Source of the DNA: Cloacibacterium sp. TD35
GTDB taxonomy: Bacteria > Bacteroidota > Bacteroidia > Flavobacteriales > Weeksellaceae
Direction of reading: 5' to 3'
Assembly (NCBI RefSeq): GCF_028864635.1
Contig: NZ_CP104850.1
Coordinates: forward strand, 564,001 to 628,000
DNA: 64,000 bases
The notes beneath the pieces are model-generated. The model worked only from the letters and a program-made list of their open reading frames with translations, did not search any database and had not been told where the DNA came from. A program made the translations under genes and the position numbers. Numbering within the stretch: position 1 is the stretch's first letter; every line of letters starts with the position of its first letter. Below are positions 8,157 through 29,895 of this stretch, piece after piece.

Positions 8157-8588
8157 ATGAAAAAATTAGTATTAGCATTCGCAATGTTGTTCGCAGGACA
8201 ATTAGCATTTGCTCAAGCATGGCAAGGTAAAGGCGACCAAAAATTACAAATTGGTTTTAATGGTTACGGTAACGGAACTGGCATTACAGGGACTTATGAC
8301 TACGGAATTTCTAACGTAGTTTCATTAGGAGCTGGAGCTAATTTTTACTTCGATGGTTATGAAGATGACCACAAAGCTTTCGTTTTCGGTAGAGTAAATT
8401 TCCACCTTCAAGATGCTCTTAATATGCCAAGCAAATGGGATTTATACCCTGGTTTAGATGTAGGTGTATTAGGAAACACATTCGGTCTAGGTGCACACTT
8501 AGGGGTGAGATATTTCTTTAACAACAATGTAGGTGCATTTATAGAAGCTGGTAATAATGGTAGCATAGGTTTATCATTTAACTTCTAG
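8157..8588 (+). CDS. Small outer-membrane beta-barrel-like protein (DUF6646-like)
   Basis: 143 residues with a signal peptide ending in LAFAQ (about residue 20). The mature part is Gly/aromatic-rich with alternating hydrophobic strands and the shared block KWDLYPGLDVGVLG...GAHLGVRYFF. The last residue is Phe, typical of outer-membrane barrels. It is a paralogue of the protein encoded at 25127, which carries the same N-terminal KGxGDxKxxIG and C-terminal LYPGL/GARYFF blocks. Function unknown. Confidence 0.7.
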   Translation: MKKLVLAFAMLFAGQLAFAQAWQGKGDQKLQIGFNGYGNGTGITGTYDYGISNVVSLGAGANFYFDGYEDDHKAFVFGRVNFHLQDALNMPSKWDLYPGLDVGVLGNTFGLGAHLGVRYFFNNNVGAFIEAGNNGSIGLSFNF

Positions 8589-8612
8589 TAAAAACTTAAC
8601 AATATTTAATGT

Positions 8613-8639
8613 AAAAGACGCTTTTTGGCGTCTTTTTTT
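8613..8639 (+). terminator. Rho-independent terminator
   Basis: Arms AAAAGACGC (8613-8621) and GCGTCTTTT (8628-8636) with a T-run follow the DUF6646-like gene. Confidence 0.85.
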
Positions 8640-8670
8640 ATTTGGTACAGTTTTAGTGAGAGAGAATTAT

Positions 8671-8678
8671 TACATTTG
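8671..8678 (+). promoter_or_regulatory. Predicted -7 box for rseP
   Basis: TACATTTG matches TAnnTTTG and lies 26 bases before the rseP ATG at 8705. Confidence 0.5.
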
Positions 8679-8704
8679 CATAACTTTAAAAAAATTAAAA
8701 TTTA

Positions 8705-10048
8705 ATGGAATTAGCAACACAGATATTTCAGTTTATATTAAGTATTTCAATTCTCGTTATTTTACACGAACTAGGCCATTTTTTACCCGCAAAATGGTTT
8801 AAATGTAGAGTAGAAAAATTCTACTTATTCTTTGACCCATGGTTTTCTTTGGCAAAGAAAAAAATTGGTGAAACCGAATACGGAATCGGTTGGTTACCAT
8901 TTGGTGGTTATGTAAAAATCGCAGGAATGGTAGACGAAAGTATGGATACAGAACAACTGAAACAACCCGCTCAACCATGGGAGTTCAGAAGCAAAACTGC
9001 TTGGCAAAGACTTATCATCATGCTAGGTGGTATTTTCGTGAATCTTATTTTGGCTTGGGCTATTTACACAGGGTTGAACTTATCTGTAGGCGAAAAATAC
9101 CATGATTTAGCAAAGTTTGAGAATGGAATTGCGGTTTCTGAAGAAGGCGCAAAAATGGGATTGATGAACGGCGACAAAATCTTAAAAATAGATGGAAAAC
9201 CTGCCGTAAGAATGGAAAATTCTATGATTAATATGCTTCTTGCAAATGAAATCACGGTACTTAGAAATGGTAAAGAAGTTGCTTTTGCACCAAAAGAAGA
9301 CGGAATTGCCCATATTTTAGGTTCAAAAACGGCTAAATTATATATTACCAACAGATTTGCTCCAGTAGTAGATTCATTGACAGAAGGCCCAGGAAAACAA
9401 GCGGGCTTACAAAAAGGAGATCAAATTGTAGCACTTAATGGCAAAAACATTAGATTTTATGATGAATTGACTGACGGATTGGCGGGAAAGAAAAACCAAC
9501 CCATCACGATAGATGTTCTTAGAAACAATGAGGTTAAAACATTTAGCTTAAATACAGACAAAGACGGGAAAATAGGTTTCAGACCAGATTTTAAACCAGC
9601 TGAAGCTGCTTTTGAAAAAACAGTTACCAATCAAGAATACAGCTTTTTACCAGCAGTAGGTAGGGGTTTTGAGAGAACTGTAGAATCTCTTACGATGCAG
9701 ATTAAGCAATTTAAATTAATGTTTAACAAAAAAATTAAAGGTTACAAAAATGTTGGCGGACCAATTGCAATTGTGAAAATGATGCCTAAAGAAATCGATT
9801 GGGTTGCATTTTGGAGTTTTACCGCTATGTTTTCTGCTTGGTTAGCGTTCCTTAACCTGTTGCCAATTCCTGGATTAGACGGTGGTCACGCGTTATTTAC
9901 GACTTGGGAAATCATCACAGGGAAGCCAGTTCCGCAAAAAGTTTTAGAAAATGCACAAATGATTGGAGTTATCTTTTTAATGGGACTAATGCTATTAATC
10001 TTTGGTTCAGATATTTACAAATTTATCATTTCACCATTTTTAAAATAA
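8705..10048 (+). CDS. rseP: RIP metalloprotease RseP (site-2 protease)
   Basis: 447 residues, normal for the family. The zinc motif H21-E-L-G-H25 lies in the first transmembrane helix. Two PDZ regions follow (about 115-200 and 205-285). The second zinc ligand region is NLLPIPGLDGGH near residue 390, followed by two terminal helices. The enzyme cuts transmembrane anti-sigma factors within the membrane in the envelope stress response and can clear remnant signal peptides. It is preceded by its own terminator/promoter region and followed by tRNA-Asn. Confidence 0.93.
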   Translation: MELATQIFQFILSISILVILHELGHFLPAKWFKCRVEKFYLFFDPWFSLAKKKIGETEYGIGWLPFGGYVKIAGMVDESMDTEQLKQPAQPWEFRSKTAWQRLIIMLGGIFVNLILAWAIYTGLNLSVGEKYHDLAKFENGIAVSEEGAKMGLMNGDKILKIDGKPAVRMENSMINMLLANEITVLRNGKEVAFAPKEDGIAHILGSKTAKLYITNRFAPVVDSLTEGPGKQAGLQKGDQIVALNGKNIRFYDELTDGLAGKKNQPITIDVLRNNEVKTFSLNTDKDGKIGFRPDFKPAEAAFEKTVTNQEYSFLPAVGRGFERTVESLTMQIKQFKLMFNKKIKGYKNVGGPIAIVKMMPKEIDWVAFWSFTAMFSAWLAFLNLLPIPGLDGGHALFTTWEIITGKPVPQKVLENAQMIGVIFLMGLMLLIFGSDIYKFIISPFLK

Positions 10049-10070
10049 TGTAAATTTTTTCAAAAAATAT

Positions 10071-10102
10071 TTTGCGCAAATAGAAAAAACGTATTATATT
10101 TG
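10071..10102 (+). promoter_or_regulatory. Promoter of tRNA-Asn
   Basis: TTTG (10071-10074) and TATATTTG (10095-10102), spaced by 20 bases, match the Bacteroidota -33/-7 promoter. The tRNA begins 23 bases further on. Confidence 0.7.
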
Positions 10103-10125
10103 CACCACTCAAAACAACAAGAGTA

Positions 10126-10199
10126 GCCTTTTTAGCTCAGTCGGTTAGAGCATCTGACTGTTAATCAGAGGGTCGCTGGTTCGAGCCCAGCAAAAGGCG
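10126..10199 (+). tRNA. tRNA-Asn (anticodon GTT)
   Basis: Seventy-four bases fold as a cloverleaf: acceptor GCCTTTT/AAAAGGC, D stem GCTC/GAGC, anticodon stem TCTGA/TCAGA with loop CTGTTAA (anticodon GTT), T stem GCTGG/CCAGC with loop TTCGAGC, discriminator G. CCA is not encoded (CCC follows). A partial copy of its 3' end recurs at 14412-14432, marking it as a likely integration site. Confidence 0.95.
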
Positions 10200-10210
10200 C
10201 CCATCACAAG

Positions 10211-10244
10211 AGAGTTTTCGATTAGTTTCGAAAACTCTTTTTTT
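10211..10244 (+). terminator. Terminator of tRNA-Asn
   Basis: Arms AGAGTTTTCGA (10211-10221) and TCGAAAACTCT (10228-10238) pair perfectly and are followed by a T-run. Confidence 0.85.
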
Positions 10245-10279
10245 ATTTGAGCATGTTTTGAGCAAGGTTTTGGGAGAAG

Positions 10280-10312
10280 TTCCTGTAAATTTAAAGGAGG
10301 GTTAAGTTTAAA
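10280..10312 (+). repeat. 33-nt direct repeat, copy 1
   Basis: Begins TTCCTGTAAATTTAAAGGAG and ends AAGTTTAAA. It matches 13144-13176 at 32 of 33 positions. Its core (CCTGTAAATTTAAAGG) is an imperfect palindrome. Both copies are in the same orientation, one on each side of the IS and TPR gene. Confidence 0.8.
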
Positions 10313-10570
10313 TAATAAAACCCTATCATTTTTTGACAGGGTTTATTTTGTTTTATTATTAGTATTGAATACCTAGCTGATATTTCTTTTATTAGTGTCT
10401 AAAAATATACTTAAAATGAGTTGTAGAAAGAAACGGATTAGAAATCTGAGGCATCGGGGGCTTTTCAATTCAGAGGTAAAACCCGCCTTTTGCAAATACT
10501 ATGTGCATGTTGCACAACTCAAATATACAAATAAACTTGTATAAAAACGGGGTATTTCGTAAATTTATGT

Positions 10571-12145
10571 ATGCAAGGCAAGAAGAGTTTTAGACCACAA
10601 TTATTTGTATCGGTCAATTTATTAGACCTAGTTCCCGAGGATAATTTTTACAGAAAATTGCAAACCGAACTCGATTTAGATTTCATTTATAAAGCAACTC
10701 AAAAGTATTATGGTAAGGAAGGACAGGAGAGTATAGATCCTGTAGTTTTCTTTAAGATATTGTTGGTGGGATATTTAAACAATATCAATTCAGATAGACA
10801 ATTAATTGCTTTTTGTAGTGATAGCTTATCGATACGCTTGTTTTTAGGTTATGATGTACATGAGCAACTTCCTTGGCACAGTACCATTAGCCGAACTCGC
10901 GGTTTATATGGCGAAGAAGTGTTTTTAAACTTGTTTAAAGAAGTCTTGAAAATGTGCGTTTCTAAAGGCATGGTTCGTGGAAAACGACAAGCGGTGGACA
11001 GCGTTTTCATCAAAGCCAACGCCAGTATGGATAGTTTAGTAGAGAAGGAAGTTTTGGAAGATGTTAGTGCTTTTGTAAACGAATTAGAAGAAAACAGCGA
11101 ATTTAAAACCACCAGTGCAAGGAAGAAGTTGGTAGAGCAGCACCACGCTTGGAAAGCAGAAGCGTATAAAGGAATGCCTAACGCTACAGGAAAAGACAAA
11201 ATAGATGAATTTGGGAACATCATTCGTCCAAAATATGTATCGAATCATACGCATTATTCACCTACAGATAGCGATGCTAGAGTGAGTGTAAAACCAGGCA
11301 AAGCGCGACAATTAAATTATTTTGGACAAATCGTAGTAGACGATGCGCACCATGTCATTACAGGAGCGTGTTCAGATTTTGCGGATAAAAGAGACAGTCA
11401 GTGTTTAGAACAAATTGTAGAACTCACAGAAGAAAACCTAAAGGAAAACGGAATAAAGTTACAAGAACTTTTAGCCGATGGTGGTTACAGCAGTGGAGAA
11501 TCGTTGGCGTATTTACACGAAAAAAATATCAACGCCTACATACCCAACTTTGGACAATACAAACCCGAGCGCGAAGGATTTACCTTCCACAAAGAAGAAA
11601 ACTATTACCAATGCACAAAACCCGAAGGCAACCAAGCCAAACTGCTTTTCAAAGGCGAAAAAACCGATAGTAAAGGCTACACCAAACGCACCTACCGAAG
11701 CAGTGAAACAGATTGTAAAAACTGTCCACTAAGAGAACCTTGTTGTGGTAAAAGCACCAAGTTCAAAAAGCTAGACGACAGCATCCATAAAGAACATTAC
11801 GACCGCATGCATCAAAAGCTTACACAGAATGAAAAATATGCCAAAAAAATGTCGAGAATAAGAAGTAAAACAGTCGAACCTGTGATTGGAACGTTAGTCA
11901 ACTTTACGAACATGAAGAGAGTCAATACACGAGGAATCAAAAACGCAAACAAACACGTATTAATGGCAAGTTTAACGTACAACTTGAAAAAATACTTGCG
12001 CTTTACCATCAAAAAATCGAGTATTTTAGCTCAAGTTATTTCCCTAAAACAAGGGAAGTGCTTTGCTTTTATGAAAACAGTCTTTCAAAGCATCAACAAC
12101 TCAATTTTAAGCACCCCAAATTTTATAATTTTGACCGTTAACTAA
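10571..12145 (+). CDS. IS1182-family transposase
   Basis: 524 residues, full length. The N-terminal domain (VPEDNFYRKLQTELD through WHSTISRTRGLYGEE) is the DUF772/IS1182 DNA-binding part. Catalytic DDE candidates are D in AVDSVFIKANAS (about residue 143), D in LLADGGYSSGE (about 305) and E in TVEPVIGTLVNFTNMKR (about 438). The cysteine cluster CKNCPLREPCC is typical. No frameshift or stop breaks the frame, so it may be active. Codon use looks slightly different from neighbours (more CGA/CGC). Confidence 0.92.
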   Translation: MQGKKSFRPQLFVSVNLLDLVPEDNFYRKLQTELDLDFIYKATQKYYGKEGQESIDPVVFFKILLVGYLNNINSDRQLIAFCSDSLSIRLFLGYDVHEQLPWHSTISRTRGLYGEEVFLNLFKEVLKMCVSKGMVRGKRQAVDSVFIKANASMDSLVEKEVLEDVSAFVNELEENSEFKTTSARKKLVEQHHAWKAEAYKGMPNATGKDKIDEFGNIIRPKYVSNHTHYSPTDSDARVSVKPGKARQLNYFGQIVVDDAHHVITGACSDFADKRDSQCLEQIVELTEENLKENGIKLQELLADGGYSSGESLAYLHEKNINAYIPNFGQYKPEREGFTFHKEENYYQCTKPEGNQAKLLFKGEKTDSKGYTKRTYRSSETDCKNCPLREPCCGKSTKFKKLDDSIHKEHYDRMHQKLTQNEKYAKKMSRIRSKTVEPVIGTLVNFTNMKRVNTRGIKNANKHVLMASLTYNLKKYLRFTIKKSSILAQVISLKQGKCFAFMKTVFQSINNSILSTPNFIILTVN

Positions 12146-12187
12146 AAAACAAACCTCTCTAAAATTGCTTCTAAAGAGGTCAAAATT
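12127..12187 (+). terminator. Hairpin/terminator region at the IS right end
   Basis: Outer arms AATTTTGACC (12127-12136) and GGTCAAAATT (12178-12187) enclose inner arms ACCTCT (12153-12158) and AGAGGT (12175-12180). It overlaps the transposase stop and could also block read-through from outside. Confidence 0.5.
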
Positions 12188-12240
12188 TTATGTTTTTGAA
12201 ATAGTATTTCTAAAAATGGGAGTTGTGCAACAGTTACCTA

Positions 12241-12260
12241 TGTTATACGCAGTTTTTATT
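12241..12260 (+). repeat. Left arm of an inverted repeat bracketing the TPR gene
   Basis: TGTTATACGCAGTTTTTATT here matches the reverse complement of 12904-12923 (TGTTGTACGCAATTTTATAA) at 14 of the first 16 positions. The arm contains the stop codon of the TPR gene. Confidence 0.6.
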
Positions 12261-12888
12261 CAACTTTTTCTACTATTCCAAACTGAACTTGATTTTCCTC
12301 TATTTTTTCGTATAAATATTTATTATTTTCTATTTTTAAAATTCTGGTTAAAAATTTTGGATTTTCAGTCATCATTTTTTCAGTGTCTTCCGTTGGAATT
12401 ATAGTGTAGTCGCCGTTTTTATACCAAATGATTTTACCACTGTAAACTTTGCCTTCAAAATTCTCATATTGAACATTATTTCTGCGCTCAAATTCATATT
12501 TTGTTGAGTCTTTTGTCTTGTCATCTAAAATTTGGAGAGTAAATTTCCCTGTTTTGAAATTTTGAGGATTTAATTTTGGATCATAATTGATGCATTTTTC
12601 CGCATAAACTTTTTTAGGATAATCATTGCCACCAAAAAATATTGAATTAATTAAATTTTGGCAACCTTTTTTATCTTCTCCAATTATAATTTGAGAATAG
12701 CCTTTAAAATAAAGTGCACTCCAATTGTTTGGAACAATTTTTAAGGATTTGTCAAGGTTTATAATTGCATTTTTAAAATCTTGATTTTGAATATTTTTCA
12801 TTGCGGTTTGCATCGCATTTGACCAATCGTCTTTTTGTTGGCTAAAATACAAGAGTGGAAAAAATATAAAAATTAAAATCTTTTTCAT
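12256..12888 (-). CDS. Exported TPR-containing protein of unknown function
   Basis: 210 residues with a signal peptide ending in LLYFSQ (about residue 17). Residues 20-100 form two to three tetratricopeptide helices pairs, including NAIINLDKSLKIVPNNWSALYFKGYSQ, a clear TPR. The C-terminal half (about 110-210) is charged and beta-rich (GKVYSGKIIWYKNGDYTIIP) and not recognised. The gene stands alone between the right end of the IS, 24 bases away, and a non-coding stretch, and it is bracketed by inverted repeats. It is intact. Confidence 0.65.
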   Translation of the reverse strand: MKKILIFIFFPLLYFSQQKDDWSNAMQTAMKNIQNQDFKNAIINLDKSLKIVPNNWSALYFKGYSQIIIGEDKKGCQNLINSIFFGGNDYPKKVYAEKCINYDPKLNPQNFKTGKFTLQILDDKTKDSTKYEFERRNNVQYENFEGKVYSGKIIWYKNGDYTIIPTEDTEKMMTENPKFLTRILKIENNKYLYEKIEENQVQFGIVEKVE

Positions 12889-12903
12889 TTTTGCGGTATC
12901 TGT

Positions 12904-12923
12904 TTATAAAATTGCGTACAACA
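12904..12923 (-). repeat. Right arm of the inverted repeat bracketing the TPR gene
   Basis: The reverse complement reads TGTTGTACGCAATTTTATAA and pairs with 12241-12260; it lies 15 bases upstream of the TPR start codon. Confidence 0.6.
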
Positions 12924-13143
12924 CTCAAATAGACGAAGTATAAATGTAACACACTTATAACCAATTAAATATTAGTTTGTAAATGATTGTAAGTATTTTG
13001 TTCGGTGATTGAGTTTCTGCTTATTAGTTTCTAACAAATTTAATTAAAATAAATGATTTAAGTTTTGGAGACTACTCATCATTGGAATTTAACCAATATT
13101 TTATTAAATCGGTAAACTTTTTTGAACACAAGTCTAGGACAAC

Positions 13144-13176
13144 TTCCTGTAAATTTAAAGGAGGGTGAAGTTTAAA
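13144..13176 (+). repeat. 33-nt direct repeat, copy 2
   Basis: Same orientation as copy 1 at 10280-10312 and differs at one base (G for T after GGAGGGT). It ends 106 bases before the LRR gene. Confidence 0.8.
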
Positions 13177-13282
13177 ATTTACTATTTAACGAATAATAAA
13201 TCGTTCATTAACAACCTTTTATGTTTTTTATCATGTTTTTTTTCCTGCTGAAAACACGTAAATTTATAGAAACAAAACTTTT

Positions 13283-14365
13283 ATGAAAACAAAACTACTT
13301 AATTCTTTTATCCTGTTTCTATTCTTGTTTTTCATCAATGGATTAACAGCACAATATTTCACTGAAAATAATATCTATTATCAAATAACTTCTTCTACTG
13401 CGCCTCTTAAAGTAAAGGTAATGAACCCCAATGGAACTAGTGGTGGTGGTTACACAGGAGATATAACAATCCCATCTACTGTTTCCAATGGAGGCAACAC
13501 ATACATTGTCACTGAAATCGGTTATCGAGCATTTTATGCTTGCGCAGGATTAACATCTGTTACCATTCCCAATTCGGTTACTTTTTTTAATTCGGAAGCA
13601 TTTTCTAATTGCACAGGATTAACATCTGTTTCTATTCCTAATTCTGTTACTTCTATTTGGGATTGGGCATTTTACAAATGTTCAGGATTAACAACTATTA
13701 CTATTCCTGATTCGGTTACATTTATTGGGGATTATGCTTTTTCTGCTTCAGGATTAAGCTCTATTTCTATTCCTAATTCTTTTACTTCTATTGGTAGAGG
13801 CATATTTAGATATTGTACAGGATTAACATCTGTTTCTATTCCTAATTCTGTTACCTCTATTGGTAATGAGGCATTTAATGGTTGTACTGAATTAACCTCT
13901 ATTTCTATTCCTGATTCAGTTACCTCTATTGGGAATTTAGCATTTTATAATTGCAATAAATTAACATCCTTTACATCTTTGGCAACAACTCCTCCAAGTC
14001 TTGGAAGTAATGTGTTTTACGGGACATGGCAGAAAAATTGCGCCCTTTTTGTTCCTGAGAATTCTAAAACAGCTTATGCTGCAGCCTCTCAATGGAATGG
14101 TTTTAAAAATGTAAACACTTATCTATCAACAACAGAAACAAAGAATAATCTTTTGAAAGTTTATCCTAATCCTGCAAAAGACTATGTGGTAATTTCTAAC
14201 ATTTCAAAAGGAGAAAATATTAGTGTTTACGATTTATCTGGTAAAATATTGTTTCAAACTAAATCTATCGGAAACTCTGTAAACATTAATACATCAGCTT
14301 ACAAAAATGGAATTTACTTGGTTAAAGTAGGAGAAAACACAACAAAAATAATGGTGAGCAAGTAA
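13283..14365 (+). CDS. BspA-type leucine-rich-repeat surface protein with type IX secretion signal
   Basis: 360 residues. A signal peptide ends in GLTAQ (about residue 24). Residues 75-245 hold about seven 23-residue LRR_5 (BspA-type) repeats of the form LTSVSIPNSVTSIGxxAFxxC. A short non-repeat region follows, then a C-terminal sorting domain (about 290-360) with VYPNPAKDYVVIS, ISVYDLSGKIL and NGIYLVKV, the marks of type IX secretion (type A). The product is expected on the cell surface or released; BspA-like repeats commonly bind proteins or host/particle surfaces. Monocistronic, inside the tRNA-bounded segment. Confidence 0.88.
   Translation: MKTKLLNSFILFLFLFFINGLTAQYFTENNIYYQITSSTAPLKVKVMNPNGTSGGGYTGDITIPSTVSNGGNTYIVTEIGYRAFYACAGLTSVTIPNSVTFFNSEAFSNCTGLTSVSIPNSVTSIWDWAFYKCSGLTTITIPDSVTFIGDYAFSASGLSSISIPNSFTSIGRGIFRYCTGLTSVSIPNSVTSIGNEAFNGCTELTSISIPDSVTSIGNLAFYNCNKLTSFTSLATTPPSLGSNVFYGTWQKNCALFVPENSKTAYAAASQWNGFKNVNTYLSTTETKNNLLKVYPNPAKDYVVISNISKGENISVYDLSGKILFQTKSIGNSVNINTSAYKNGIYLVKVGENTTKIMVSK
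13548..13968 (+). repeat. Tandem 69-bp repeats encoding LRR units
   Basis: Six to seven units of about 69 bases recur within the gene, sharing segments such as GGATTAACATCTGTTTCTAT. Identity between neighbouring units is high enough for slippage or recombination to change the unit number. Confidence 0.75.
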
Positions 14366-14411
14366 CAAAACTTTAAAAATATCAACAATAAAAAAAGATT
14401 TGCCGATTTAT

Positions 14412-14432
14412 CTGGTTAGAGCCCAGCAAAAG
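14412..14432 (+). other. Partial copy of the tRNA-Asn 3' end (candidate attR)
   Basis: Twenty of 21 bases match 10176-10196 of tRNA-Asn (CTGGTT, one mismatch, GAGCCCAGCAAAAG). The rest of the tRNA is absent. The match is followed by a CCATCAC block, as after the real tRNA, and by a terminator. The layout is that expected when an element integrates into the 3' end of a tRNA gene and restores it. Confidence 0.7.
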
Positions 14433-14437
14433 CACCA

Positions 14438-14467
14438 AAACCATCACAGTAATGTGGTGGTTTTTTG
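14438..14467 (+). terminator. Terminator behind the tRNA fragment
   Basis: Arms AAACCATCAC (14438-14447) and GTGGTGGTTT (14454-14463, one G-T pair) with a T-run. It may be the original terminator of tRNA-Asn before the insertion. Confidence 0.75.
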
Positions 14468-14695: not shown

Positions 14696-16363
14696 ATGAA
14701 ACAATTCTCATCAAAACGCAGCATTCAGATTTTAGGGCACGTTCTTCAGCAATATGGTATAAACAAAATGGTAATTTCGCCAGGAAGCAGAAATGCTCCA
14801 CTTGCTATTCATTTTTCAGAGCTAGATTCTTTTGAATGCTTCAGCATCGTAGACGAAAGAAGCGCTGCTTTTGTAGCGATGGGAATGGCAAAATCGCTTA
14901 AACAACCTATTGCAATTTCTTGTACCTCTGGTTCTGCTGCTACCAATTATTATCCTGCTGTGGTAGAAGCATTTTATCAAAACGTTCCTCTTCTAGTACT
15001 TACTGCAGACAGACCTACAGATTTTGTGGATTTATTTGATGGGCAAACGATTCGTCAAAAAGATTTGTTTCAACAGCATTCTTACGGAGATTTTCAGCTT
15101 TTGGAAGATGACAAAGAAAATGCTGAAGAAGAGAACTTAAAAATCGTAAAAACAGCGATAGAACTGTGTTTCGAGAAACAAGGGCCGGTTCATATCAATA
15201 TTCCGCTTACAGAACCATTATACCAGTACGCTACAGAATTGCCTGTCTTTCCTAGCATAGAGAAAACCATTCAGAAAAGAGATTTCGAGATTTCCTCTAC
15301 CCTAGTTTCTGAATTTAATGTAGCTAAAAGAATTTTGATTTTAGCAGGAACGCTTGACAAAAATCCTAAACTCCAAAGTTTATTGTCGCAATTCGTGAAA
15401 AATCATTCTGTGGTAGTGCTTACAGAAGCGAATTCTAATCTCTATCACGACAAGTTTTTCAATCATATTGACCGATATGTCTTCAACTACAGCGAAGAAG
15501 ATTTCAAAACCTACGCTCCAGATTTACTCATTACGATTGGTCAAAACGTAGTTTCTAAAAAAGTGAAAGAATTTTTGAGAAAAGCAAAACCTCAAAATCA
15601 TTGGCATATTGATGAATTTTGGCAACCGAATACGTATTTTGCTTTAACTCAAGAAATCAAAACAAAACCAGAAATTTTCTTCAGTCAGTTGTTGAAATTT
15701 GCCAAGTTAGAACCTTCAGCTTATTTCAATCTTTGGGATGTTCTTCGTGATAAAAAAGATGCAAAACACGATGAATATTGCAAAACAATAGATTTTTCAG
15801 ATTTTAAAATTTTCCAAATTTTAGAACAAAAAATTCCGAGTAATTACAATATTCATATTTCTAATTCTTCGGCGATTCGCTATGCAGAATTGTTCCCATA
15901 TTCACAAAATCACAACATTTATTGCAACCGTGGAACCAGCGGAATAGATGGTTCTACTTCTACTGCGATGGGTTTTGCGATGATGAACGAAAATCCTACG
16001 ATTTTGATTTCTGGCGAACTTGGATTTTTCTATGATATTAATGGACTTTGGAACAATTACATTCCGCCGTACACTAGAATTATCGTGATGAATAACGGTG
16101 AAGGAAATATTTTTAGAATTATTCCCGGACCTACAACTTCTAATGCAATAGACGAATTTATTGCGACCAAACATCAGAAAAACTGCGAAAATCTAGCTAA
16201 ACATTTCGGTTTTGGATATTTTAAAGTGGAAGACGAAGATACTCTGTTAAGAGTTTTAGACAATTTCTTTAAGCCAGAAGCTAAACCAAAAATCTTAGAA
16301 ATCAACACTGCCGATATTCAAAACGCAGAAGTTTTGAAAGAATATTTTAAGTTCTTGAAGTAA
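14696..16363 (+). CDS. menD: MenD, 2-succinyl-5-enolpyruvyl-6-hydroxy-3-cyclohexene-1-carboxylate synthase
   Basis: 555 residues from the ATG at 14696, chosen over an upstream TTG at 14648 because the promoter box lies between them and the family starts near this point. The thiamine-diphosphate enzyme adds succinic semialdehyde to isochorismate in menaquinone synthesis. Visible blocks: ISPGSRNAPLAIH (about 28-40), DERSAAFVAMGMAK with the ThDP-activating Glu, CTSGSAATNYYPAVVEA, and a C-terminal RGTSGIDGSTSTAMGF and NNGEGNIF cofactor-binding region. Menaquinone is the usual quinone of this group. Convergent with pabC. Confidence 0.95.
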   Translation: MKQFSSKRSIQILGHVLQQYGINKMVISPGSRNAPLAIHFSELDSFECFSIVDERSAAFVAMGMAKSLKQPIAISCTSGSAATNYYPAVVEAFYQNVPLLVLTADRPTDFVDLFDGQTIRQKDLFQQHSYGDFQLLEDDKENAEEENLKIVKTAIELCFEKQGPVHINIPLTEPLYQYATELPVFPSIEKTIQKRDFEISSTLVSEFNVAKRILILAGTLDKNPKLQSLLSQFVKNHSVVVLTEANSNLYHDKFFNHIDRYVFNYSEEDFKTYAPDLLITIGQNVVSKKVKEFLRKAKPQNHWHIDEFWQPNTYFALTQEIKTKPEIFFSQLLKFAKLEPSAYFNLWDVLRDKKDAKHDEYCKTIDFSDFKIFQILEQKIPSNYNIHISNSSAIRYAELFPYSQNHNIYCNRGTSGIDGSTSTAMGFAMMNENPTILISGELGFFYDINGLWNNYIPPYTRIIVMNNGEGNIFRIIPGPTTSNAIDEFIATKHQKNCENLAKHFGFGYFKVEDEDTLLRVLDNFFKPEAKPKILEINTADIQNAEVLKEYFKFLK

Positions 16364-28782: not shown

Positions 28783-29895
28783 TTAATTCTCGGCAGTTTT
28801 CTTTCTTAGAAACTCTAAAACTTTCCAGCCATAATCGTCTACTTTCTTCAAAACTTCTGCGAAAAGGATGGCTAAAATTACATTCAAAACATAAACAATC
28901 ACCATCAAAACCCAAATATTTATGCTGTCTTTGAGTGGCGGTATTAAAAAATACACTACTGAAGAGCTCATTCCTTGCGCAAAATAATAGAAAATGGCGT
29001 TTTTACCAATGTAGTTAATGAAATTGTCTTTAGTGATTTTCAATCGGTTATACAATACAAAAATGGTCACCAAAGAAAGTAAACTCCACACGATGTAAGG
29101 GATTTTTGGCGGAAACTTTTGCTTATTAAATTTATAGAAAACTTCGTTCCCGAAATACCAGAAAACCAAAACCAAACTCAGTGCAACTAAACCATACAAC
29201 ATTGGAACGAAAACATTTTTAATTCTTTTTCCTTTCAATTGAGTAGCGATTAAGAAAATGGCCAGATAAAAAGCAACGTAACCTACTTGTCCGCTAGGAT
29301 AATACGGCGCAAAGTTTTTCATCACATCATTATCAATATTGAAATAAACCGTGAGCGCTAAACAAACTCCTATTAACCATTTGATATGTTTAGGGAAAAA
29401 TTTCAAGGCTAAAACTCCAAAAACGGTTACGATGTAATAGACTTTAAGATACCAGAAGCTCCCCATCACTACAGGAAAACTATCACAATTGCTATAGCTG
29501 TGAAGCCACCAATTACCGAGCATATCCCAATTAAACGCGGAATCTAAATTTGGCACACCATATTTAGTCCCGAAAACCGTATAATAGGACTGCATTCCTT
29601 CTGCTCCAAAAATATTGAAGATTCCGAGCTTCATAAATCCATCAAGGAAAAACAAGAACGTCACGAAAATCATATACGTCACCTGAAGTTTCAGTAATCT
29701 GTACAAAGTTTTCTCTACATTATTCCCAGAAGTTAAGCCACTTAAAGCAAAAAATACGGGAACGTCTATGAGTAGGCTGAGCGTTCTCACTTCCGAAGGA
29801 AGGTAGAGCTGACCGCTCCAAAAAGCAGTATGAATAAAAATAATAGAAAGAGTAGCCAAACCTTTGGCAAAATCAATGTAGAGGTCTCGTTTCAT
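28783..29895 (-). CDS. Acyltransferase family 3 membrane protein
   Basis: 370 residues with about ten transmembrane helices. The start RDLYIDFAKGLATLSIIFIHT is the typical first helix of acyltransferase-3 proteins (RxxxxDxxKGxxxxxVxxxH), with His at the active-site position, and VPVFFALSGL follows. Members O-acylate surface sugars or peptidoglycan from the cytoplasmic side. The neighbour miaE has its own promoter, so the two are not necessarily linked. Substrate unknown. Confidence 0.85.
   Translation of the reverse strand: MKRDLYIDFAKGLATLSIIFIHTAFWSGQLYLPSEVRTLSLLIDVPVFFALSGLTSGNNVEKTLYRLLKLQVTYMIFVTFLFFLDGFMKLGIFNIFGAEGMQSYYTVFGTKYGVPNLDSAFNWDMLGNWWLHSYSNCDSFPVVMGSFWYLKVYYIVTVFGVLALKFFPKHIKWLIGVCLALTVYFNIDNDVMKNFAPYYPSGQVGYVAFYLAIFLIATQLKGKRIKNVFVPMLYGLVALSLVLVFWYFGNEVFYKFNKQKFPPKIPYIVWSLLSLVTIFVLYNRLKITKDNFINYIGKNAIFYYFAQGMSSSVVYFLIPPLKDSINIWVLMVIVYVLNVILAILFAEVLKKVDDYGWKVLEFLRKKTAEN

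What the first reader, a model, noticed from the sequence alone, without database searches (positions are those of the whole stretch)
10126..14467. Accessory segment bounded by tRNA-Asn and a partial copy of its 3' end
The last 24 bases of tRNA-Asn are mirrored at 14412-14432 (20 of 21 identical), followed again by a CCATCAC block and a terminator, 4.2 kb downstream. Between them lie only accessory features: an IS1182 element, an inverted-repeat-bracketed TPR gene, two copies of a 33-nt repeat and a type IX-secreted LRR protein. This is the layout of an element integrated at a tRNA 3' end. No integrase is left inside, so it may be a decayed or trans-mobilised island.
Basis: partly seen in the sequence, partly recalled or inferred. 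Interest (0 to 1): 0.7.

Follow-up and report, generated by a model that had tools for sequence, protein, structure and literature searches.

The report
Integrase-less island at a tRNA-Asn gene
A 4.2-kb piece of foreign DNA sits in the end of a tRNA gene in a Cloacibacterium chromosome; four close relatives have the empty site, a more distant species carries different cargo behind the same end, and no integrase gene was found in the piece.

Summary
tRNA-Asn (10126-10201) is followed by a 4,235-bp segment (10202-14436) ending in a direct repeat of the tRNA 3' end (20 of 21; none in 100 shuffles). Four of four close same-genus relatives have the empty site: tRNA-Asn, then directly the terminator now behind the relic, then menD. 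Cloacibacterium rupense carries, at the same tRNA, an insert with the same first 117 bp (93%; flanking rseP 78%, menD 74%) but other cargo (SoFic), and behind it a second insert with QatABCD. No integrase was found in these inserts or the window's. Elsewhere in the family the syntenic tRNA-Asn holds integrase-bearing islands, and one integrase-less islet there shares both ends with one of them. This is an integrase-less, CIME-like islet at a tRNA hotspot, decayed or moved in trans. Corrections: the two terminators differ; the 'TPR' gene has no profile support and looks like an integron-type cassette; the IS1182 element sits in that cassette's presumed recombination site. Whether the islet still moves was not tested.

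The parts
8705..10048 (+). rseP-like M50 protease gene, conserved left neighbour of the site
   Evidence: Pfam PF02163; an rseP match on 58 of 66 surveyed stretches that hold tRNA-Asn, seen directly upstream in the 17 with coordinates
10126..10201 (+). tRNA-Asn(GTT), target gene; its 3' end is now the left copy of the repeat (attL)
   Evidence: ARAGORN; repeat 10176-10196
10202..10318 (+). left end of the insert: terminator hairpin 10208-10241 plus about 77 bp, shared with the C. rupense SoFic insert
   Evidence: 93% over 117 nt, one difference in the first 81 alignment columns; found over this length in 2 of 320 family genomes
10256..10312 (+). copy 1 of a 57-nt repeat, inside the left end
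   Evidence: the repeat finder D2
10504..12237 (+). IS1182-family element, transposase 10571-12145, 5-bp target duplication CTATG (10499-10503 / 12238-12242)
   Evidence: NF033551 above cut-off; second copy in the genome 99.9% identical; duplication and coordinates
12242..12922 (-). integron-cassette-like unit: gene 12256-12888 bracketed by GTTATACGC (12242-12250) and GCGTACAAC (12914-12922)
   Evidence: boxes; a 51% homologue lies in an array of genes separated by attC-like repeats in G298 (L149)
13120..13176 (+). copy 2 of the 57-nt repeat (82%), possible remnant of a second element's left end (inference)
13283..14365 (+). BspA-type LRR protein with T9SS sorting tail, cargo
   Evidence: Pfam, TIGR04183
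14412..14436 (+). relic of the tRNA-Asn 3' end (attR)
   Evidence: 20 of 21 identical to 10176-10196; aligned with four empty sites
14437..14467 (+). original tRNA-Asn terminator, displaced by the insert
   Evidence: directly follows tRNA-Asn in 4 of 4 close relatives
14696..16363 (+). menD, right neighbour
   Evidence: Pfam TPP-enzyme domains; follows the tRNA in L025-L028

Best explanation
The segment 10202-14436 is a genomic islet that entered the 3' end of tRNA-Asn by site-specific recombination. The incoming DNA carried its own copy of the tRNA 3' end plus a terminator, so the tRNA stayed whole; the old 3' end and old terminator were pushed 4.2 kb downstream, where the old end now decays. 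Shown: empty sites, the direct repeat, a different terminator behind the tRNA, and the same left end with different cargo in C. rupense. Inferred: a tyrosine integrase of the kind found at this site in related genera did it, either from a gene since lost or in trans, which makes the islet CIME-like. It later took an IS1182 insertion. The 57-nt repeat may mark two elements accreted in tandem (inferred); tandem inserts are directly visible in C. rupense.
For: Empty site in 4 of 4 close relatives. Direct repeat beyond chance. Left end 93% identical to the C. rupense insert over 117 nt while flanking rseP and menD are 78% and 74%. C. rupense has two inserts in tandem, separated by a 37-nt copy of the tRNA 3' end. 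Of 12 surveyed loci with a downstream partial copy of the tRNA end, 7 hold a tyrosine recombinase between tRNA and copy (one truncated, one split in two frames) and 5 do not (sample biased, see Tried and rejected). Integrase-less L102 matches integrase-bearing L171 over its left 2-954 nt (76%) and its last 87 nt, flush to the repeat (83%).
Against: No integrase-bearing element with this left end was found: in 320 family genomes it is only in the window's genome and C. rupense; an exact 36-nt scan of genome contigs gave only C. rupense; plasmids, phages and viral contigs gave nothing. The relic is short and mutated, so the crossover cannot be placed. Of the 10 PF00589 matches in the host, 8 regions were fetched; one has a tRNA nearby, tRNA-Phe, none has tRNA-Asn. 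The window insert shares nothing with the SoFic insert beyond the left end and nothing with the Qat insert, so no common right end is known. Phylogeny does not separate gain from precise loss.
Confidence: 0.8

Rival explanations
1. The segment lay between two ancestral tandem tRNA-Asn genes, as is common in genus g20. One gene decayed in the window's lineage, and recombination between the copies removed the segment in the four relatives.
For: Many g20 loci have two full tRNA-Asn genes at this place. The window is sister to the four empty genomes, so insertion and loss are not separated by the tree.
Against: The left end shared with C. rupense (one difference in 81 columns) is far more alike than the flanking genes at 74-78%, which fits horizontal spread or strong constraint on that end. 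The C. rupense copies are partial 3' ends; ARAGORN finds one tRNA-Asn gene there. The relic has no 5' half.
Confidence: 0.1
2. The islet came in by natural transformation and homologous recombination through the tRNA and flanks, without an integrase at any step.
For: Integrase-less inserts occur in 5 of 12 surveyed loci with a downstream partial copy.
Against: It does not explain how the tRNA 3' end came to be duplicated at the first insertion, nor the use of this tRNA end by several integrase types.
Confidence: 0.1
3. A composite of unrelated insertions (IS, cassette, LRR gene) next to a chance repeat.
For: The contents are mixed and the IS has a near-identical second copy.
Against: No chance match in 100 shuffles; the empty sites break at the repeat.
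Confidence: 0.01

Closest known systems
CIME (cis-mobilizable element) as defined in PMC5704250 (passages read)
   Same: Two att-like ends at a tRNA 3' end, no integration or transfer genes found; tandem inserts (accretion) in a sister species.
   Different: No parental ICE or IME with the same ends was found; mobilisation not tested.
L102 (integrase-less, G145) and L171 (integrase-bearing, G207) at the same tRNA-Asn in genus g20 (unnamed; Chryseobacterium is my guess, from recall)
   Same: Same rseP-linked tRNA-Asn; the integrase-less one is bounded by the tRNA and a 3'-end copy.
   Different: There both ends match an integrase-bearing island; here only the left end matches another integrase-less insert.
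SoFic and QatABCD inserts at tRNA-Asn of C. rupense (L030)
   Same: Same site; the SoFic insert has the same left end.
   Different: They carry recognised defence genes; the two window cargo proteins tested match no PADLOC model.

Membership tests
Genomic island integrated at a tRNA 3' end | Direct repeat of the tRNA 3' end bounds the segment | tested here: met
Genomic island integrated at a tRNA 3' end | Empty site in relatives | tested here: met
   4 of 4 close relatives
Genomic island integrated at a tRNA 3' end | Integrase gene inside | tested here: not met
   none found; BLAST against known tyrosine integrases only, so an unlike one could be missed
CIME | Retains attL and attR, lacks integration and transfer genes | tested here: met
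   attR is mutated (1 substitution in 21 nt, GGCGCC changed to GCACC)
CIME | Derived from an ICE or IME with the same ends | tested here: inconclusive
   no parent found; an analogous pair exists at the same site
CIME | Can be mobilised by a related element | not testable with these tools
   needs excision and transfer assays
Integron gene cassette (gene 12256-12888) | Gene followed by an attC site | tested here: inconclusive
   core-like boxes present and a homologue in an attC-like array, but the attC profile gave one weak window match only, at 29678 (E 4.7), none at this gene, whose presumed site is interrupted by the IS

The most novel reading that the evidence does not exclude
Weeksellaceae have a tRNA-Asn 'socket' into which small integrase-less cassettes, each with one functional module (SoFic, QatABCD, a toxin-like gene plus small ORF, a T9SS LRR protein) behind an end that restores the tRNA and its terminator, are slotted and stacked by integrases supplied in trans.
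Probability: 0.25. Interest if true: 0.6.

Novelty: new member of a known kind. Interest (0 to 1): 0.42.

Why it matters
It documents a recurrent insertion site (rseP/tRNA-Asn) in the family Weeksellaceae, with empty, integrase-bearing, integrase-less and stacked states side by side, and shows two known defence systems sitting there in small inserts without an integrase. That makes it a usable place to look for small mobile modules that a search starting from integrases would miss.

Tried and rejected
Reading the 57-nt repeat as the C-terminus of a lost protein: the 23-aa peptide had no match in plasmids; one search printed only its first 40 rows, so I repeated it over all 238 loci: beyond the window's and C. 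rupense's own copies there were only weak, gapped or 7-residue matches (L041, best E 1.5e-4; L044). The reading stays unsupported. Matches to parts of the left end in 14 other family genomes were short (26-52 nt) and judged chance after viewing them (in L054 the slice printed missed the match). The tRNA 3' end and the left-end hairpin were absent from viral contigs. A home-made attC detector found 0 in its positive control L149 and was replaced by a profile. No integron integrase over the curated cut-off in 9 genomes. One search was wasted on a 60-aa fragment. G004 could not be used: its menD contig ends 0.3 kb upstream of menD and the tRNA pattern was not found. Partial matches upstream of the tRNA in L163 and L181 were left out of the count of 12.

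Limits of the survey: the 17 loci were all chosen because their genome had two or more tRNA-end matches; the 40 loci were picked by hand from genomes with one match; so the proportions are not frequencies. Integrases were sought by BLAST against known ones. Strongly truncated tRNA copies (under 14 identical nt) are not seen by the rule. Genus g20 is unnamed in the data.

Full report
The window lies at G000:C1:564001-628000 in a 2.6-Mb genome. tRNA-Asn is at 10126-10201; its 3' end recurs at 14412-14432 with one mismatch, and 100 shuffles gave no match. Start-to-start distance is 4,236 bp; the inserted unit is 10202-14436.

Empty site. A search with menD matched 46 of 59 genomes, the window's own included. 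I fetched 14 upstream regions. In the four closest (G002, G003, G005, G006) the order is rseP, tRNA-Asn, terminator, menD. Their terminator is the one that lies behind the relic in the window; in the window the tRNA is followed by another terminator. A tree of rseP plus menD, rooted on C. rupense, puts the window as sister to these four (support 0.995), so insertion in one lineage and precise loss in the other are not separated. G004 could not be judged because its contig ends. In the eight remaining regions (other genera) no tRNA-Asn was found near menD.

A second species. In C. rupense (L030) tRNA-Asn is followed by the same left end: 93% over 117 nt, one difference in the first 81 columns, against 78% for rseP and 74% for menD. 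After that the sequences part. Its first insert holds one SoFic protein (PADLOC E 4.6e-109). A 37-nt tRNA 3'-end copy follows, then a second insert with QatA, QatB, QatC and QatD (E 4.6e-117, 3.9e-28, 7.5e-115, 4.1e-59), then a further partial copy with the terminator. No integrase was found in these inserts. The window insert shares only the left end with the SoFic insert and nothing with the Qat insert. The left end was found over its length in 2 of 320 family genomes.

The site in the family. The tRNA 3'-end pattern (up to 3 mismatches) matched 109 of 320 genomes. I surveyed 66 loci; 58 have an rseP match on the fetched stretch. Many genus g20 loci have two full tRNA-Asn genes. Twelve loci have a downstream partial copy; seven of these contain a tyrosine recombinase (L106 truncated, L161 in two frames) and five do not (L097, L102, L114, L030, window). 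The recombinases fall into four types: L113/L186/L161 (65-89% identical), L098/L106 (90%), L108 and L171. Integrase-less L102 matches integrase-bearing L171 over its left 2-954 nt (76%), two inner stretches, and its last 87 nt up to the repeat (83%). That is the relation expected between a decayed and a complete element. For the window no complete partner was found.

Own integrases. G000 has 10 PF00589 matches. Eight regions were fetched; one has a tRNA nearby, tRNA-Phe. Four of them (L141, L142, L143, L146) hold a protein 31-47% identical to the L186 integrase, in L143 over 148 residues. None is tied to tRNA-Asn.

Contents. The IS1182 element (10504-12237) has a 5-bp target duplication, and the genome holds a second copy 99.9% identical, so it moved recently. 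Of seven full copies in the seven genus genomes and G322, six show perfect 5-bp duplications under one rule; the seventh (L199) did not fit the rule but shows GGCTG on both sides by eye. By eye, five of the seven (window, L198, L204, L215, L199) lie at attC-like sequence and two (L203, L209) do not clearly. The attC profile supports L198 (E 9.6e-9), L204 and L215 only weakly, and not L199 or the window. The gene at 12256-12888 has homologues in 11 other genomes of 320, one of them weak, and one lies in a contig made of genes separated by attC-like repeats. It is therefore probably a stray integron-type cassette rather than part of the islet's own machinery. The other homologues inspected show no such bracket by eye, apart from G322's one side. 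The LRR protein's best relatives are 46-48% identical, in genus g26 (316 genomes).

Literature. The CIME definition was read in passages of PMC5704250; no other paper was opened. A search for Cloacibacterium with tRNA and integrase gave one paper, on Elizabethkingia by title. Searches on CIME accretion (15 of 49 listed), Elizabethkingia and tRNA-Asn (10 of 78), defence systems, tRNA and hotspots (15 of 18), Cloacibacterium and integrons (10 of 2,582), IS1182 with attC (2 papers) and CALIN in Bacteroidetes (1 paper) listed no title that describes this site. I make no stronger claim about what is in print. Targeting of attC by IS1111-type elements is recalled; one search lists papers that hold those terms, not read.

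Verdict: a real, site-specific, integrase-less islet at a tRNA hotspot, a new member of a known kind. Its interest comes from the shared end with different cargo and from defence systems in stacked integrase-less inserts in a sister species.

Noticed in passing
window 10504-12237; L198, L204, L215, L199: An IS1182-family element whose copies lie in five of seven cases (by eye; profile support strong for L198 only) at attC-like cassette sites with a 5-bp duplication; possibly an IS that targets attC, as recalled for the IS1111 group.
   Followed up: partly
L229 (G003:C1:1629000-1646000), starts 960, 3220, 5025, 6834, 7914, 8747, 12480, 13286: A cassette-like array in which genes are followed by a repeat of about 300 nt that holds an IS1182-like end between cassette-type core boxes, by eye; the copy at 13286 differs in its second half.
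   Followed up: partly
L149 (G298 contig C1, whole 5.1 kb): A contig consisting of integron-type cassettes: six attC-profile matches, four of which were used to build the profile; no integrase among its ORFs as listed.
   Followed up: partly
L228 (G001:C4:294901-304000): Four independent matches to the attC-like profile at E 1.8e-10 or better in C. rupense, near IS1182 copies and a 171-178-aa tyrosine-recombinase frame.
   Followed up: no
L030 oriented 8305-13950: QatABCD in C. rupense between two partial copies of the tRNA-Asn end and terminator; the small gene at its right edge is 53% identical over 49 residues to one in the L113 island.
   Followed up: partly
L114 2409-5354; L097 2251-3701: Integrase-less inserts at tRNA-Asn sharing a 105-aa ORF (90% identical); in L114 it follows a gene with a Tox-MPTase4 domain, which suggests a toxin-immunity pair.
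   Followed up: partly
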